Below, piece by piece: positions 1,550 through 6,344 of a stretch of DNA of 9,599 nucleotides (positions are counted from its first letter, which is position 1; each line of letters opens with the position of its first letter). The stretch comes from Acidobacteriaceae bacterium. Lineage in GTDB: Bacteria; Acidobacteriota; Terriglobia; Terriglobales; Acidobacteriaceae. The DNA lies in contig PKXI01000407.1 in assembly GCA_003133425.1 (NCBI GenBank), forward strand, positions 3,236 to 12,834, given 5' to 3'. The notes under the pieces were generated by a model. It saw only the letters and a program-made list of their open reading frames with translations. It was not told where the DNA came from and searched no databases. The position numbers and the translations under genes are program-made.

Positions 1550-1920
1550 TTACGATCGCGTTTCCGACGGCTGGCCCGGGTGAGGATAGGCGTCGTGTTC
1601 CCGCTGGTTGAGCGGCCGGGTCAGACAGCGGAAGTCCTTTTCAATCGAAATCGCGAGGGCGCCGGATTGCGCATAAACGCCGACTTCCTCCGAAGCCGCC
1701 CAGGCTTGAGCAACTTCCGTGGCGACCGAGACGGTCGCGGTGCCCTGGCGGAATCGAGCTTGCACAGCACCCGGCTCCAGATGGCTCAGCAGCCGGTAAG
1801 CCAACACCTCGCCGCCGCCGAAATCGACTGACTCCTCCACCAGCCCGATGTTCCTCAGCCGTTCAACCTCTGACCGTGTCAGCGAAGCCGCAGCGAATTG
1901 CCTTGCAGTCGCAGTTTCAT
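1550..1920 (-). pseudogene. DUF7009-like small protein, frameshifted near the N-terminus
   Basis: From ATG 1918-1920 the gene reads MKLRLQGNSLRLR and then hits TGA at 1879-1881. In the neighbouring frame, from 1882 on, it continues LTRSEVERLRNIGLVEESVD, later VGVYAQSGALAISIEKDFRC, and ends in a tail with DAYPHPGQ. Joining the two gives a 123-residue protein that I recall as the DUF7009 pattern (short MKxRxxGNSxRxRL start, central WAASEEVGVY, EKDFxCL near the end). One missing base near 1882 (CGCTGACA instead of CGCCTGACA) explains the break. An alternative ATG at 1931-1933 keeps the long frame open but replaces the conserved start with unrelated residues, and that ATG overlaps the apparent -10 box. 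The function of the family is unknown to me. It lies directly upstream of the hemerythrin remnant and diverges from the nnrS-like gene. A sequencing error rather than true decay is possible. Confidence 0.6.
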
Positions 1921-1931
1921 AAACTTGGTCC

Positions 1932-1937
1932 ATACTA
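1932..1937 (-). promoter_or_regulatory. Candidate -10 box (TAGTAT) for the DUF7009-like gene
   Basis: On the minus strand this hexamer matches the sigma70 -10 consensus at 4 of 6 positions, including T1, A2 and T6. Its first base is 29.5 bp from the centre of the GTGAC-N4-GTCAC palindrome at 1960-1973. That is the spacing at which a CRP/FNR-type activator sits at -41.5 (class II). The predicted transcript start would be near 1925, about 5 nt before the ATG at 1920. No good -35 is seen, as expected for an activator-dependent promoter. Confidence 0.4.
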
Positions 1938-1959: not shown

Positions 1960-1973
1960 GTGACTTCGGTCAC
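1960..1973. promoter_or_regulatory. Perfect palindrome GTGAC-TTCG-GTCAC, candidate CRP/FNR-family operator
   Basis: This perfect 5-4-5 inverted repeat lies in the divergent intergenic region between the DUF7009-like gene (start 1920) and the nnrS-like gene (start 2007). A near-identical copy occurs at 4447-4460. CRP/FNR-superfamily regulators such as FNR, DNR and NnrR bind 5-4-5 repeats, often with a GAC/GTC-type half-site in the NO-responsive members. The centre (1966.5) is 40.5 bp from the nnrS-like start and 46.5 bp from the DUF7009-like start, so one site could serve both directions. The regulator is not in the window. Confidence 0.6.
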
Positions 1974-2006
1974 CACCGCTACTGCGCCGGCGAGCGATCA
2001 TGAGGC

Positions 2007-3554
2007 GTGAACGTTTTCCGTTTGCCCGACCAATGGCGGTCCGCGTTCGAGCGCGATTCGGCAGAAAAGCCGGCCCTGCCCGATCCGGTACCAGAACGCA
2101 GGTTGGCGCGACTACTCGCCGCCTACGTTGTCTCGGGCCTGTTCTTCATGATTTTGCCGGGCACGGTGCTCGGCGTCTGGAATCTGGTCGGGATCAGTTC
2201 GCAGCGGGAGATGGCGGCCGTTTCGACGGCATGGATTCAGGCCCATGGGCACGCCCAGTTCTTCGGGTGGTTTGGGACTTTCATCATCGGGATTTCGCTA
2301 TACACCTTTCCGAAGTTCCGGGGCTCCGCGTGCCGCTCCATTCCCCTCGCCTGGATCATGTGGGTTATGTGGAGCGTTGGCGTGGGGCTTCGATGGCTGG
2401 CGGGCGTTCAGAACGTCGCGATCCCAGCGGCGTTCCGTATCTCTTCGGCGCTGGAACTTGGGGTTGCGGTGCTGTTCCTCTGGCAGGTGACCGCCTCGGG
2501 CCCAAAGCAACGGAAGGGTCAGGCTTGGGAGGCCCCGATCTTCGCCGGTTTCACCGCACTGCTCCTGCTTCTGGGGTGGCAATTACTGCTCACCATGCGG
2601 CCGCTCAGTTCGCCCTCCCTGCCGGCCTTGCCGAACCGTATTCTGATCTCGTTGGCCGTCTGGACCTTCGGCTTTCCAGTGGTGGTGGGATACTGCGCCA
2701 AGTTCTTCCCGGGTTTGCTCGGAACTGCAGTGGCAAACGTAACGGGAATCCACCTGACGCTCGGGCTGGTAGCCATTGCAGCCGTTGGCTTCGCACTGGA
2801 TTCGGCTGTTCTGGCTGGGTCCGCTACTTCCATCGCTGTGGCGCTGGCGTTGTGGTCTTTGCGCGTATTTCATCCGAAGAGGGGAAATCCGAAGACCACC
2901 GGGGTATACAGGCGCTATCCGCAATTCGCGCGACTCGCCTATGTCTGGCTGGCCGTCTCCGCGGTCCTCGGGTTCGGCGTGTCGCGGCCAGGTATGCTCG
3001 GCGCGTCGCGGCACGCCTTCACAGTTGGATTCCTCGCAACGCTGATCTTCTCAATCGGCCCGCGCATCTTGCCGTCGTTTCTGAACAGCAGAGAATTATG
3101 GAGCGCACGGCTGATGCGGTTCTCACTTGTGCTGGTTACTGCGGGCTGCGCGCTGCGGGTCATCTCCGAACCCTTGGCCTATGGCGGCATTGTCGCCTCG
3201 GCATGGACGGTTCTTCCCGTTTCTGCCTTCAGCGAATTGGCGGCCGTCCTGTTATTCGGTTTCAATCTTGCGATGACTCTGGCGGCGCCGATTCCGTCCT
3301 GGTTCGGACGCAAGCAGGTAAACGATCGAATGAGCATTTACTGGCTGATCTCGAGTTACCCTGCCACTCGTAAGATCCTGGTCGATAACGGCTTGGTCAC
3401 GCTCGGCGGAGCGGACAGGGTTCCCAAGAGTCTCTCCTTGGGCGAAGCGGCCCGAGCCGACGAGGTTCCGCCCGAGATCCTGATCGAAAAACTGGGCGAT
3501 TTCTTTGAATCGCGCCTGCCGCGGTCGCTCCGTCAGAACTCTGGCGCCGTGTGA
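2007..3554 (+). CDS. nnrS: NnrS family membrane protein with C-terminal DUF1858-like domain
   Basis: NnrS proteins are polytopic haem- and copper-containing inner-membrane proteins that protect against nitric oxide and nitrosative stress. This 515-residue protein has about twelve hydrophobic segments between residues 35 and 435, among them GLFFMILPGTVLGVW, the hallmark WIQAHGHAQFFGWFGTFIIG with candidate metal ligands His80 and His82, and FSIGPRILPSF. Residues from about 442 form a soluble domain (IYWLISSYPATRKILVDNGL, then LSLGEAARADEVPPEILIEK) that resembles DUF1858, the small helical domain found at the N-terminus of Ric/ScdA di-iron repair proteins. It lacks the cysteine of redox-type versions. 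The frame opens just after a TGA at 2001-2003, so GTG 2007 is the first possible start. It has no well-spaced Shine-Dalgarno, so leaderless translation is possible. An operator-like palindrome lies 40 bp upstream. A YwiC-like gene follows directly. Confidence 0.87.
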   Translation: MNVFRLPDQWRSAFERDSAEKPALPDPVPERRLARLLAAYVVSGLFFMILPGTVLGVWNLVGISSQREMAAVSTAWIQAHGHAQFFGWFGTFIIGISLYTFPKFRGSACRSIPLAWIMWVMWSVGVGLRWLAGVQNVAIPAAFRISSALELGVAVLFLWQVTASGPKQRKGQAWEAPIFAGFTALLLLLGWQLLLTMRPLSSPSLPALPNRILISLAVWTFGFPVVVGYCAKFFPGLLGTAVANVTGIHLTLGLVAIAAVGFALDSAVLAGSATSIAVALALWSLRVFHPKRGNPKTTGVYRRYPQFARLAYVWLAVSAVLGFGVSRPGMLGASRHAFTVGFLATLIFSIGPRILPSFLNSRELWSARLMRFSLVLVTAGCALRVISEPLAYGGIVASAWTVLPVSAFSELAAVLLFGFNLAMTLAAPIPSWFGRKQVNDRMSIYWLISSYPATRKILVDNGLVTLGGADRVPKSLSLGEAARADEVPPEILIEKLGDFFESRLPRSLRQNSGAV

Positions 3555-3610
3555 TCACGGTTCCGGTTGCGTTGGCGACCTGCGGGACAATGGGTTGGGA
3601 GGGTGCGGAA

Positions 3611-4450
3611 ATGCCAGCCGTGACGGCGTCGGCGAGTCGGCGGCGATCCCTGATCGTTCCCCGTGAACACGGAGCGTGGGGCATCCTGCTGGTTCCCATG
3701 TTGACCGGTGCATCCGTGGGGCTTTGGAAAGGGGGAGGGGCCGGGGGCCTTGCTCCCTTCAGCATCGTGACCCTCACGCTGTTCTGGTTGCGAACGCCCG
3801 TCGAAAGCTGGATCGGAACGGCCCCGATTCGTGCACGAACGCCCAACGAACTGCGGTTCGTGCGGAATACCTCGCTGGCGTTAGCGGCGGTCTCATTGAG
3901 TGCATTGTTCTGGCTATTTTGGGGATGGCAGAACCGGGCACTGCTGTGGATCGGCGCGACTGCTGGAAGCGCATTCCTCGTCCAGTCAGTTCTAAAGCGG
4001 ACTGGGCGCCGTGCGCGGGCGCCGGCGCAGATGATTGGGGCCGCGGGATTGACTGCTACTGCACCCGCCGCGTATTACGCCGTGACCGGGCAACTGGATC
4101 TCATCGCCTGGTCTCTTTGGGCCGCCAACCTCCTGTTCGCCATCAACCAGATCCAGTACGTACAGCTTCGGATCCACGCGGCACACACCACAAATCGGAG
4201 CGAGAAGCTATCGGCCGGGCGGTGGTTCCTGATCGGGCAAACCATCCTGATGGCATTGCTGGCCGTCGCCTGCGCCGAGCAATACTTCCGCTGGTATGCT
4301 GCAGTTGCCTTCCTGCCGGTCTTATTCCGCGGATTCGCCTGGTTCGCGATCGAACCTCAACCGCTAGCGATTCCGGCCCTCGGTAAGAGCGAACTGATCT
4401 ACGCAGCCATGTTTGGCGTTTTTCTCGTGGTTGGCACGCAATTGTCGTGA
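3611..4450 (+). CDS. YwiC-like family integral membrane protein
   Basis: A 279-residue membrane protein whose N-terminus carries the YwiC-like signature PREHGAWGILLVP (residues 17-29), followed by about seven or eight hydrophobic segments, for example ALAAVSLSALFWLFWGW and ILMALLAVACAEQYF. A conserved-looking NLLFAINQIQYVQLRI lies in the middle. The biochemical function of the family is unknown; in Bacillus subtilis ywiC lies next to fnr and narK, genes of anaerobic nitrate respiration. I chose ATG 3611 because of the strong ribosome binding site GGGAGGG at 3597-3603. An in-frame GTG at 3551 would overlap the nnrS stop as GTGA and add 20 residues of non-membrane sequence. Either way the gene is probably co-transcribed with nnrS. 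Its TGA (4448-4450) lies inside the second palindrome, so the operator of the next unit overlaps the end of this gene. Confidence 0.82.
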   Translation: MPAVTASASRRRSLIVPREHGAWGILLVPMLTGASVGLWKGGGAGGLAPFSIVTLTLFWLRTPVESWIGTAPIRARTPNELRFVRNTSLALAAVSLSALFWLFWGWQNRALLWIGATAGSAFLVQSVLKRTGRRARAPAQMIGAAGLTATAPAAYYAVTGQLDLIAWSLWAANLLFAINQIQYVQLRIHAAHTTNRSEKLSAGRWFLIGQTILMALLAVACAEQYFRWYAAVAFLPVLFRGFAWFAIEPQPLAIPALGKSELIYAAMFGVFLVVGTQLS

Positions 4451-4460
4451 CTTGCGTCAC
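4447..4460. promoter_or_regulatory. Perfect palindrome GTGAC-TTGC-GTCAC, candidate CRP/FNR-family operator
   Basis: This is a second copy of the palindrome at 1960-1973, identical in both arms and in the first two spacer bases (GTGACTTnnGTCAC). It overlaps the TGA of the YwiC-like gene. Its centre (4453.5) is 41.5 bp from the cupin start codon at 4495. A weak -10-like TAATCT (4483-4488) sits at the spacing expected for an activator bound at -41.5. This implies that the cupin/radical SAM pair has its own promoter and the same regulator as the nnrS-like unit. Confidence 0.6.
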
Positions 4461-4494
4461 TGCCGCCGGTCTATCGGCACCGTAATCTGAAGGC

Positions 4495-4863
4495 ATGGCG
4501 GCAATATTGGGTTCGTATCGCGACGCAATCGCATTCCGGCCGGAGAGATTCAACCCGGTGCTGGTGGCAAGCGGCTCACACATGAAGGCTGTGCTTACTT
4601 GCCTGGAACCGGGTCAGTTCATTCCGGTACACCACCCCGGAATTGACATGTTGCTGATCGTTCTGGAGGGTGAAGGTGAGGTGGTCTCAGGCGATCGGCA
4701 GGAGGCCGCCCACCCGGGAACGGTCATCTTTGCCCCTGCGGGCGAGGCTCGTGGGGTCAGGGCGGAAACCAGGCTGATTGCCTTGCATGTTGTGAGCCCG
4801 CCACCCACCGAGAAGGACCACGTCGAAGTTACGGCCGGGCTGAAAGAACGGAAATGGCTATGA
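4495..4863 (+). CDS. Small single-domain cupin protein
   Basis: A 122-residue cupin-fold protein. Cupin motif 1 is seen as PGQFIPVHHPGIDMLLIVLE (His46 and His47) and motif 2 as PGTVIFAPAGEARGVRA. In motif 2 the usual metal-binding His is replaced by Arg86, and in motif 1 the usual Glu appears to be Asp51, so the metal site may be altered or absent. The ATG at 4495 is preceded by a weak GAAGG and lies about 41 bp from the centre of the operator-like palindrome; a leaderless or very short-leader transcript is possible. The gene overlaps the following radical SAM gene as ATGA (4860-4863), so the two are almost certainly translated together. It aligns along its length with the second cupin in this window (5997-6344, minus), which retains the motif 2 His. 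The role is unknown; a small-molecule- or metal-binding partner of the radical SAM enzyme is an inference from context. Confidence 0.8.
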   Translation: MAAILGSYRDAIAFRPERFNPVLVASGSHMKAVLTCLEPGQFIPVHHPGIDMLLIVLEGEGEVVSGDRQEAAHPGTVIFAPAGEARGVRAETRLIALHVVSPPPTEKDHVEVTAGLKERKWL

Positions 4864-6008
4864 GAAGTTTCGATGAAGCACCTTTCATTGTCATTTGGGA
4901 GCTGACACAGGCCTGCGATCTGGCGTGCGTTCACTGCCGGGCCTGCGCGATTGAGAGCCGAAGCCCATTAGAACTGTCCACTGAGGAAGGTTTCCGCTTG
5001 CTTGAGGAAGTCCGCTCCTTCGGTGACCCACTGATGGTTTTCACTGGCGGCGACCCTTTGAAGCGGCCGGACCTGCTCCCGTTGATCGAGAAGAGCGTGC
5101 GCTTGGGGCTGCGAACCACCGTGACTCCGAGCGCAACTCCACTGCTGACGGAGGGTGCCATCGAACGGTTTAGGGACTGTGGATTGGCCCGGATGGCAAT
5201 CAGCCTCGATGGGCCGGACTCGGAAAGCCACGACGGATTCCGCCGTGTTAACGGTTCCTTCAATTGTACGATTCTCGCGTTGGAACATGCACAACGAATT
5301 GGCCTGCAAACGCAGGTGAACACCACCGTCACCAGGCACAATGTCGGCCGCCTGGGCGAGATTGCGCGGTTGGTCGAGCGCGTTGGCGCGAAGCTCTGGA
5401 GCGTGTTCTTTCTGGTTGCGACGGGACGGGCGTCGGCATCGCAGGACCTGACTGCGGAAGAGTACGAAGAGGTCTTCGCCTTCCTCTACAATCTGTCGAA
5501 GACCGCCCCATTCGACATCAAGACCACGGAAGCCCAGCACTATCGCCGCTACGTGGCTCAAAGCAGAAAGGCCGACAGCGAGGGCGGCGGCGCAGCACGG
5601 CGGACGGCGCCCGAGATCATTCAGCGGCAGGCCGGCATTAACGACGGCAAGGGATTCGTATTTGTATCGCACACGGGGGAAATCTACCCTAGTGGTTTCC
5701 TGCCACTCACTGCAGGGAACGTCCGACGCGACTCGCTTACAGCGGTGTACCGCGAATCACCCCTCTTCCGGACACTCCGCAATGCCGACAATCTGCAAGG
5801 AAAGTGCGGTGAATGCGAATACCGTAACCTGTGCGGTGGTTCCCGATCGCGTTCGTATGCGCTCACGGGGAATCCGCTGGCCGAAGAGCCGCGGTGCATC
5901 TATCAACCGAAGCCGATGGGCAACGCTCTTCCTCGCGATCGGCGCGCGGAACAGGCAGGGATCCCGCCTGTCGGGAACGACACACTCTTCGTCCAGCTAT
6001 ACACCTAA
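4860..6008 (+). CDS. Radical SAM/SPASM protein (NirJ/AhbD-related, TIGR04053-like)
   Basis: A 382-residue radical SAM enzyme. The N-terminal WELTQACDLACVHCRA carries the CxxxCxxC ligands of the SAM-cleaving 4Fe-4S cluster (Cys19, 23, 26). GGDP (63-66) is the SAM-binding loop, and MAISLDGPDSESHDGFR is the typical strand 4 region. FVSHTGEIYPSGFLP then GNVR and the C-terminal SPASM cysteines (316, 319, 325, 346) bind auxiliary Fe-S. Close relatives are haem d1/haem b pathway enzymes (NirJ, AhbD) and the uncharacterised TIGR04053 family; the FVSHTGEIYPSGFLP wording points to the last. I chose ATG 4860 because it forms an ATGA overlap with the cupin stop and has GGAAA about 5 nt upstream; ATG 4854 is possible. 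About 35 residues follow the last SPASM cysteine. The 3' end overlaps a convergent cupin gene. The product is unknown; haem or peptide modification are both possible. Confidence 0.85.
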   Translation: MRSFDEAPFIVIWELTQACDLACVHCRACAIESRSPLELSTEEGFRLLEEVRSFGDPLMVFTGGDPLKRPDLLPLIEKSVRLGLRTTVTPSATPLLTEGAIERFRDCGLARMAISLDGPDSESHDGFRRVNGSFNCTILALEHAQRIGLQTQVNTTVTRHNVGRLGEIARLVERVGAKLWSVFFLVATGRASASQDLTAEEYEEVFAFLYNLSKTAPFDIKTTEAQHYRRYVAQSRKADSEGGGAARRTAPEIIQRQAGINDGKGFVFVSHTGEIYPSGFLPLTAGNVRRDSLTAVYRESPLFRTLRNADNLQGKCGECEYRNLCGGSRSRSYALTGNPLAEEPRCIYQPKPMGNALPRDRRAEQAGIPPVGNDTLFVQLYT

Positions 6009-6344
6009 GCCATGTAATGCCGGGGGATTCTTGATCATGGTCAGGAGCATGACGACTTCACTCTGCGCTTTGATACCGTGTTCCAGGTTTGGCGGCATGT
6101 AAACGAAGGTTCCTTCCGTCGCCTGTTGTTCCTCACCGCCCAGCTTGAGATTGGCCTCTCCCTTCAGGAAAATCAGCGTGGCAGGAAAAGGGGCAGTGTG
6201 CGCTGAAAGCTCTTGTCCCGCCGCAAAGCCGAACAGAATCACCTTTGTTCTGTCATCATTCTGCAGCGTCTGGCTCAGTATCCCGTTCTCGGGTACCTTT
6301 GCCAGCTCGCGAATATCGCGTACGTAAACGTGTACGTCAGTCAT
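5997..6344 (-). CDS. Second small cupin-domain protein
   Basis: A 115-residue single-domain cupin. Motif 1 reads AGQELSAHTAPFPATLIFLK (His49) and motif 2 EGTFVYMPPNLEHGIKA (Glu88, His89), so unlike the other cupin here it keeps the motif 2 histidine. It ends with VVMLLTMIKNPP. The start at 6344 follows an AG-rich leader (GAGGATGATAGAAGA). It lies 25 bp downstream of the metE stop on the same strand, so it may be the last gene of a response regulator-metE-cupin transcript. Its 3' end overlaps the radical SAM gene by 12 bp (TAG at 5997-5999, opposing TAA at 6006-6008), leaving no room for an intergenic terminator. It and the cupin at 4495-4863 align end to end at the domain core and are probably distant paralogues. 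Its role is unknown. Confidence 0.82.
   Translation of the reverse strand: MTDVHVYVRDIRELAKVPENGILSQTLQNDDRTKVILFGFAAGQELSAHTAPFPATLIFLKGEANLKLGGEEQQATEGTFVYMPPNLEHGIKAQSEVVMLLTMIKNPPALHGLGV

What the first reader, a model, noticed from the sequence alone, without database searches (positions are those of the whole stretch)
1960..4460. Matched pair of GTGAC-N4-GTCAC operators in front of two functionally linked units
Two perfect 14-bp palindromes sharing GTGACTTnnGTCAC (1960-1973 and 4447-4460) lie only where core transcription units should start: the DUF7009-like/nnrS divergent region, and before cupin/radical SAM. I scanned for further GTGAC/GTCAC pairs and found none. The 5-4-5 geometry is that of CRP/FNR-superfamily sites. 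Distances from centre to start codon are 40.5 and 41.5 bp. On the divergent side TAGTAT is placed exactly for -41.5 activation. The downstream genes fit an NO or low-oxygen regulon controlled by a regulator encoded elsewhere. The half-site is not the textbook FNR TTGAT.
Basis: partly seen in the sequence, partly recalled or inferred. Interest (0 to 1): 0.72.

Follow-up and report, generated by a model that had tools for sequence, protein, structure and literature searches.

The report
Control switches for nitric-oxide defence genes
Two short mirror-image DNA sites in an uncultured soil bacterium are very probably landing pads for a gene switch of the CRP/FNR type that serves nitric-oxide defence genes in Acidobacteriota, a control circuit of which I found no published description.

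Summary
Both sites are real: GTGACTTCGGTCAC (1960-1973) and GTGACTTGCGTCAC (4447-4460); nothing else in the window matches with 0 or 1 mismatch, and 0 of 1500 simulated windows held two. In 78 related NnrS loci GTGAC-N4-GTCAC occurs 32 times, against a mean of 0.83 for 59 rearrangements of the half-site. Sites precede nnrS, RIC, nirK, NO-reductase and TIGR04053 radical-SAM genes. A CRP/FNR protein is encoded beside them in 30 of the 78 loci. In 61 aligned orthologues R180 and R185 are invariant and E181 is kept in 60, while cAMP contacts are replaced. Of 152 gene-facing sites, 56 have TAnnnT exactly 29.5 bp from the centre (largest of 500 shuffles: 9), the geometry of class II (-41.5) activation. 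Site 2 with its -10 is kept before the cupin gene in two other genomes.

Not shown: the regulator in the window's own genome (not held), binding, expression, or the signal; NO is inferred from the targets. Only 26 of 90 genome-wide exact-core sites could be tied to the three gene families tested. New member of a known kind.

The parts
1960..1973 (.). Operator 1, GTGACTTCGGTCAC, between DUF7009 (minus) and nnrS (plus)
   Evidence: enrichment of the motif at NnrS loci
1996..2001 (+). Weak -10-like GATCAT towards nnrS, at +29.5 from the centre (fits nAnnnT, not TAnnnT; the usual G at +8.5 is missing on this side)
1931..1936 (-). -10-like TAGTAT towards DUF7009, at +30.5 from the centre, overlapping the ATG at 1933
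1550..1933 (-). DUF7009 protein frame; expected N-terminus (ATG 1920) is separated from it by a one-base frameshift
   Evidence: PF22668 69.8 bits against 27
2007..3554 (+). NnrS-family membrane protein
   Evidence: PF05940 32.3 bits against 28; 53% and 51% relatives L020, L087
3551..4450 (+). YwiC-like membrane protein, probably same operon as nnrS (overlapping ends)
   Evidence: PF14256 46.3 bits against 25
4447..4460 (.). Operator 2, GTGACTTGCGTCAC, overlapping the last bases of the YwiC frame
   Evidence: footprint across three genomes
4483..4488 (+). -10 element TAATCT at +29.5 from the centre of operator 2
   Evidence: invariant in window, G139 and G054
4495..4863 (+). Cupin protein; start codon 41.5 bp from the operator centre, so the message may be leaderless
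   Evidence: PF07883; 67% identical cupin in G139 with an exact site at 42.5 bp
4854..6008 (+). TIGR04053 radical SAM/SPASM protein, a relative of haem b synthase AhbD and NirJ2
   Evidence: TIGR04053 465.1 bits against 395; AhbD 344 against 500; 66% identical gene beside the regulator in G009
5997..6344 (-). Second cupin, no site with up to 2 mismatches nearby; homologue follows the regulator gene in G008. Membership of the regulon is only suggested
   Evidence: 61% identity to L186 1216-1536

Best explanation
The two sites are operators of one CRP/FNR-superfamily regulator that serves a nitrosative-stress regulon of Acidobacteriota. A dimer reads GTGAC-N4-GTCAC (GTGA-N6-TCAC) with a recognition helix T-V-R-E-x-x-S-R. 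Centred about 41.5 bp before the transcription start it overlaps a weak -35 and activates RNA polymerase at a TAnnnT -10 (class II activation). Site 1 serves nnrS-ywiC and perhaps DUF7009 in both directions; site 2 serves cupin-TIGR04053. Shown by computation: the sites, their enrichment near NO genes, fixed promoter geometry, footprint of site 2, linkage to one regulator clade and its recognition residues. Inferred: binding, activation, NO or an NO-derived species as signal, and presence of the regulator in the window's own genome.
For: Motif specificity: 32 sites in 24 of 78 loci, first of 1024 half-sites, only at gap 4 (other gaps 0-12: 0-2). Regulator linkage: 30 of 78 NnrS loci encode it; in those 30 a site with up to 1 mismatch follows the gene in 28 and with up to 2 in all 30; over the 60 rows (4 repeat a place) 47 have one with up to 1 mismatch. 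In 200 genomes 17, 18 and 4 of 90 exact-core sites lie within 300 bp of the regulator, RIC and TIGR04053; chance at 1 kb 0.043, 0.043, 0.025. Centre to RIC profile start is 79.5-84.5 bp in 15 of 19 pairs. -10 at +29.5 in 56 of 152, G at +8.5 in 119 of 152. Recognition residues: R180 61/61, E181 60/61, R185 61/61, which by PMC1274295 (passages) go with G3 and A6 of the half-site. The regulator lies beside TIGR04053 with an exact site between (G009), RIC with an exact site between (G004), and a NorB-domain gene with a 1-mismatch site between (G006). Footprint of site 2.
Against: 64 of 90 genome-wide sites are not within 1 kb of the three families tested; a reversed-pattern control gave 29 hits against 95, so about a third may be background. 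Exact-core sites associate only moderately with the regulator at genome level (45 of 64 with, 55 of 136 without; no correction for kinship). The -10 is absent at +29.5 or +30.5 in most regulator-gene sites (2 of 19 have it) and in 6 of 6 hemerythrin sites; among 59 exact sites 12 have it at 29.5 and 9 at 30.5. Site 1 has only GATCAT towards nnrS. The window's genome could not be searched, and the one bin holding a near-copy lacks the regulator. No CRP activating-region residue tested (H19, H21, E96, K101, K52 in E. coli) is conserved.
Confidence: 0.8

Rival explanations
1. The sites serve a different CRP/FNR paralogue with the same half-site, or the same regulator answering another cue (low oxygen, redox, a nucleotide), and NO genes are only part of a wider regulon.
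For: Half-site GTGA is that of many CRP-type proteins; genomes hold further CRP-like proteins (4 hits at 26-31% identity in 3 of 10 genomes), and one of these (L188) has an exact site within about 210 bp upstream. 64 of 90 sites are unassigned. Some sites stand before non-NO genes, such as a dehydrogenase E1-like frame in L055 and L071 (named by my reading).
Against: The clade linked to the sites is consistently beside RIC (33 genomes within 300 bp) and TIGR04053 (10 genomes). cAMP contacts are replaced in all 61 sequences and no N-terminal cysteine cluster is conserved.
Confidence: 0.12
2. The regulator represses rather than activates at these sites.
For: The operator overlaps the -35 region, where a repressor would also work; conserved E. 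coli activating-region residues are missing.
Against: A single strict offset of 29.5 bp between site and -10, with only a vestigial -35, is what class II activation predicts (geometry recalled); repressor sites usually vary in position.
Confidence: 0.1
3. Chance palindromes.
For: About a third of genome-wide exact-core hits look like background (my count of its control columns).
Against: 0 of 1500 simulated windows hold two sites; both lie at gene starts; operator 2 and its -10 are kept in two other genomes.
Confidence: 0.02

Closest known systems
HcpR of Desulfovibrio and relatives (PMC1274295, passages read)
   Same: CRP/FNR regulator of nitrosative-stress genes; Desulfovibrio motif wTGTGAnnnnnnTCACAw shares GTGA-N6-TCAC, other delta-proteobacteria TTGACnnnnGTCAA shares TGAC-N4-GTCA
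   Different: Core targets there are hcp and frdX; here RIC, nnrS, TIGR04053, NO reductase. Flanking T/A of the motif not conserved here. Orthology to HcpR not tested by a tree
DNR (Pseudomonas) and NnrR (alpha-proteobacteria)
   Same: CRP/FNR activators of NO-related genes including nnrS and dnrN/RIC (PMC1274295); DNR structures are among the matches (3dkw, E 2.2e-20)
   Different: Half-sites TTGAT and TTGcg there, GTGAC here; position 180 is Arg here
M. tuberculosis CRP (Rv3676; 3d0s) and C. glutamicum GlxR
   Same: Closest solved relatives by sequence (E 2.3e-32; profile 6.5e-44)
   Different: They bind cAMP (entry titles); the Arg-Ser at the pocket is Tyr-Pro here
E. coli CRP class II promoters (recalled)
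   Same: Centre at -41.5 and half-site GTGA
   Different: No cAMP pocket; activating-region residues not conserved

Membership tests
CRP/FNR superfamily (candidate regulator in relatives, not in the window) | cNMP-binding domain plus Crp-type helix-turn-helix | tested here: met
   PF00027 95.1 bits and PF13545 65 bits, both over cut-off (L071); likewise L183
CRP/FNR superfamily operators | 5-4-5 palindrome matching the recognition helix (R180, E181, R185) | tested here: met
   code from PMC1274295
cAMP receptor proteins | cAMP contacts R82, S83, T127, S128 (recalled, E. coli numbering) | tested here: not met
   Y/F, P, L/M and V/I/T in all 61 sequences
NCBIfam CRP, FtrB, FixK, NtcA, FNR models | score over the curated cut-off | tested here: not met
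   best FtrB 89.8 of 211, CRP 77.7 of 266 for L071
FNR | N-terminal cysteine cluster and TTGAT half-site (recalled) | tested here: not met
   only two cysteine columns are conserved, at E. coli positions 36 and 106 (with-Met 37 and 107), none N-terminal; half-site GTGAC
DNR | CTTGATnnnnATCAAG motif | tested here: not met
   motif GTGAC-N4-GTCAC; DNR motif from PMC1274295
DNR/NnrR-type NO sensing | haem-bound NO as activating signal | not testable with these tools
   needs purified protein
HcpR | linkage to hcp, membership of the HcpR branch | not tested
   no hcp search or tree was made
Class II (-41.5) activated promoters | fixed distance of about 29.5 bp from operator centre to -10 | tested here: met
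   56 of 152 sites, 44 of 129 after thinning; window site 2 yes, site 1 only partly
TIGR04053 radical SAM | score over the curated cut-off | tested here: met
   465.1 against 395 bits

The most novel reading that the evidence does not exclude
A regulator clade typical of Acidobacteriota, with a ligand pocket unlike those of cAMP, FNR or DNR sensors (Tyr-Pro in place of Arg-Ser, two near-invariant cysteines and a conserved C-x-x-H), senses NO and governs an NO-defence regulon that includes an uncharacterised cupin/radical-SAM (TIGR04053, kin of haem synthases) pathway which makes or remodels a haem-like cofactor on NO exposure.
Probability: 0.2. Interest if true: 0.75.

Novelty: new member of a known kind. 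Interest (0 to 1): 0.55.

Why it matters
Acidobacteriota are abundant in soil and peat, where NO and N2O turnover matters (recalled). A motif, a regulator clade and a promoter geometry would let their NO regulon be predicted from sequence. It also ties uncharacterised genes (TIGR04053 radical SAM, its cupin, perhaps YwiC and DUF7009) to nitrosative stress, which makes their functions testable.

Tried and rejected
The window's own genome could not be scanned. The nearest bin G001 was tried first: 8 exact sites against 1 in the reversed control, two of them the window's; five of the other six lie inside long open frames (one, in L001, inside a frame that may not be a gene), one (L007) between a frame ending at 1489 and one starting at 1543. 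It has cNMP-binding domains (10 matches) but no HTH_Crp_2 over the cut-off. It was set aside because 12 pieces of its other contigs correlate with the window's tetranucleotides at 0.74, against up to 0.91 for Acidobacteriota loci. MetE did not settle the host: present in 5 of 29 genomes (G001 among them) and in 2 of 18 chosen genomes (G001, and a fragment in G006).

A cAMP or FNR sensor was considered and rejected on residues. DUF7009 was found only in the window and its near-copy among the loci held, so conservation on that side is untested. Cupin orthologues: 4 of 299 genomes; G139 has an exact site, G054 and G099 sites with 1 mismatch, G032 none within its locus. In G099 the distance to the start is unclear; in G054 the start region does not read as a clean ATG and the radical SAM holds a stop.

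Structure: AlphaFold model of the regulator (pLDDT 89.3, pTM 0.63) has the expected fold; the pdb_via list is led by cyclic-nucleotide domains and full-length CRP-family rows, many with large rmsd, so it adds nothing on function.

Literature: listings, passages of PMC1274295 and PMC8510549. I saw no description of this motif or of an acidobacterial NO regulon; one search found no paper with TIGR04053, YwiC-like or DUF7009. The library holds open-licence papers only, and the listings were read by title and abstract start, so absence is weakly tested.

Full report
OBSERVATION. Both sites are at the stated places. They are 5-4-5 interrupted palindromes sharing GTGACTTnnGTCAC. One search found no other match with 0 or 1 mismatch; 0 of 1500 order-2 Markov copies of the window held two. 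Genes: DUF7009 (minus strand), NnrS, YwiC-like, cupin, TIGR04053 radical SAM, a second cupin, MetE.

HOST. The window's assembly is not held. The nearest bin, G001, carries a near-copy (contig C138; by site spacing the same contig as L019, titled Opitutaceae, whose nnrS is 99% identical). Other pieces of G001 correlate with the window at 0.74 in tetranucleotide use, Acidobacteriota loci at up to 0.91. The other 78 NnrS loci are mostly titled Acidobacteria, Terriglobia or Bryobacterales; five are not (L028, L038, L042, L052, L058). I infer an acidobacterial window and a misplaced contig in G001.

ENRICHMENT. In those 78 loci (844 kb) GTGAC-N4-GTCAC occurs 32 times in 24 loci. The 59 other arrangements of the half-site average 0.83; it ranks first of all 1024 five-base halves (next CGGCG 30, GCCTG 26, not examined further); gaps other than 4, from 0 to 12, give 0-2. 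Sites precede nnrS, RIC (TIGR03652), a copper nitrite reductase (TIGR02376), a GATase/cytochrome cluster and a CRP/FNR gene; a minority lie inside open frames as my simple frame picker draws them (families).

REGULATOR. Orthologues of the CRP/FNR protein of L071 (4524-5228) are encoded in 30 of the 78 loci, plus a fragment in L026 and a distant 22% match in L097. After the gene stands a site with up to 1 mismatch in 28 of 30 and up to 2 in all 30; over all 60 rows, of which 4 repeat a place, 47 have one with up to 1 mismatch. Lineage variants are GTGACnnAAGTCAT and GCGACTAAAGTCAC. In 61 aligned sequences R180, S184 and R185 are invariant, E181 is kept in 60, and the cAMP contacts R82, S83, T127 and S128 are replaced (E. 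coli numbering). In PMC1274295 (passages) R180 and E181 correlate with G3 and A6 of the half-site, which fits GTGA. Domains: PF00027 and PF13545.

GENOME-SCALE TEST. In 200 genomes of the class of G002 (the genome of L071, titled Bryobacterales) GTGACTTNRGTCAC gave 90 places in 64 genomes; counting both strands 95 hits against 29 for the reversed control (my count). The regulator was found in 100 of 200 at E 1e-45, RIC in 72, TIGR04053 in 69 at 1e-100, 50 over the cut-off. Of the 90 places 17, 18 and 4 lie within 300 bp of the regulator, RIC and TIGR04053; chance at 1 kb is 0.043, 0.043 and 0.025; the union within 1 kb is 26 of 90 and 64 stay unassigned. Centre to RIC profile start is 79.5-84.5 bp in 15 of 19 pairs. 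At genome level 45 of 64 with a site and 55 of 136 without have the regulator (Fisher P 1.3e-4); 65 of 72 with RIC and 35 of 128 without have it (P 1e-18); kinship is not corrected. The regulator lies within 300 bp of RIC in 33 genomes and of TIGR04053 in 10. Nine of ten chosen genomes have the regulator; G001 does not.

LINKS TO THE WINDOW'S GENES. In G009 an exact site lies between the regulator and a TIGR04053 gene 66% identical to the window's. In G004, genome of L020 (NnrS 53% identical), an exact site lies between the divergent regulator and RIC genes. In G006, genome of L087 (NnrS 51%), a site with 1 mismatch lies between the regulator and a gene with the NorB cytochrome-c-like domain (PF22085, 171.8 bits). 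In G008 the regulator precedes a homologue (61%) of the window's second cupin. In G139 a cupin 67% identical to the window's, followed by TIGR04053, has the exact site GTGACAATGGTCAC 42.5 bp before its ATG, against 41.5 in the window. Aligning window, G139 and G054, the invariant letters gather in the operator (GTnAC...GTCAC), the GC after it, the -10 CxTAATCTG and the CAT near the start.

MECHANISM. Of 152 gene-facing sites with up to 1 mismatch, 56 have TAnnnT at exactly +29.5 from the centre; the next best outside the operator is 12 at +30.5, the mean elsewhere 0.9, the largest of 500 shuffles 9; 119 have G at +8.5. After thinning similar flanks it is 44 of 129, and a smaller mirrored peak on the other side (19 of 152) suggests some two-way promoters. 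By gene the count at 29.5 is RIC 31 of 57, nnrS 11 of 26, TIGR04053 6 of 32, NorB-like 4 of 7, regulator 1 of 19, hemerythrin 0 of 6, others few; among 59 exact sites 12 at 29.5 and 9 at 30.5. So the geometry is strong for RIC and nnrS and weak for some targets. A -10 starting at +29.5 and a -35 from +6.5 are 17 bp apart and put the operator centre at -41.5 (my arithmetic; class II geometry is recalled). For the window's cupin the start would fall on or beside the ATG, a leaderless message (inference). Site 1 has GATCAT towards nnrS and TAGTAT towards DUF7009.

JUDGEMENT. An operator pair of a CRP/FNR regulator of NO-defence genes is well supported, activation fairly well, NO as signal only through the company the genes keep. 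It works like DNR, NnrR and HcpR regulons; by features tested it is not a cAMP receptor, FNR or DNR, and HcpR membership was not tested.

Noticed in passing
1880-1933 (minus strand): The DUF7009 frame is broken by one base after MKLRLQGNSLRLR, in the window and in the near-copy L019/L006 alike; the open frame from ATG 1933 carries a different N-terminus. Pseudogene or altered start is unclear.
   Followed up: partly
1040-1400: Remains that look like a transposase N-terminal part (RRRFTAEYKQRILAEVDRAKGSGGVGALLRREGL), named by my reading only.
   Followed up: no
L188 (G007 C157): A second, distant CRP-like protein (29-30% identity) has an exact GTGACTCACGTCAC about 207 bp before the matched start; another site lies nearby on the contig.
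   Followed up: no
G007 C54: Six exact GTGAC-N4-GTCAC places within 37 kb of one contig that also holds the regulator: a possible regulon island.
   Followed up: no
L019 / G001 C138: A contig of acidobacterial character seems to sit in a genome bin titled Opitutaceae.
   Followed up: partly
L217 1332-1345: A second exact site in G139 lies 42.5 bp before a DUF2249/cupin-like gene that follows the radical SAM gene.
   Followed up: partly
A1 columns C52, C121 and the H of C-x-x-H (L071 numbering): Two cysteines (60 of 61 each) and a histidine (56 of 61) are conserved in the effector domain of the regulator; a possible sensor site, distances not measured.
   Followed up: no
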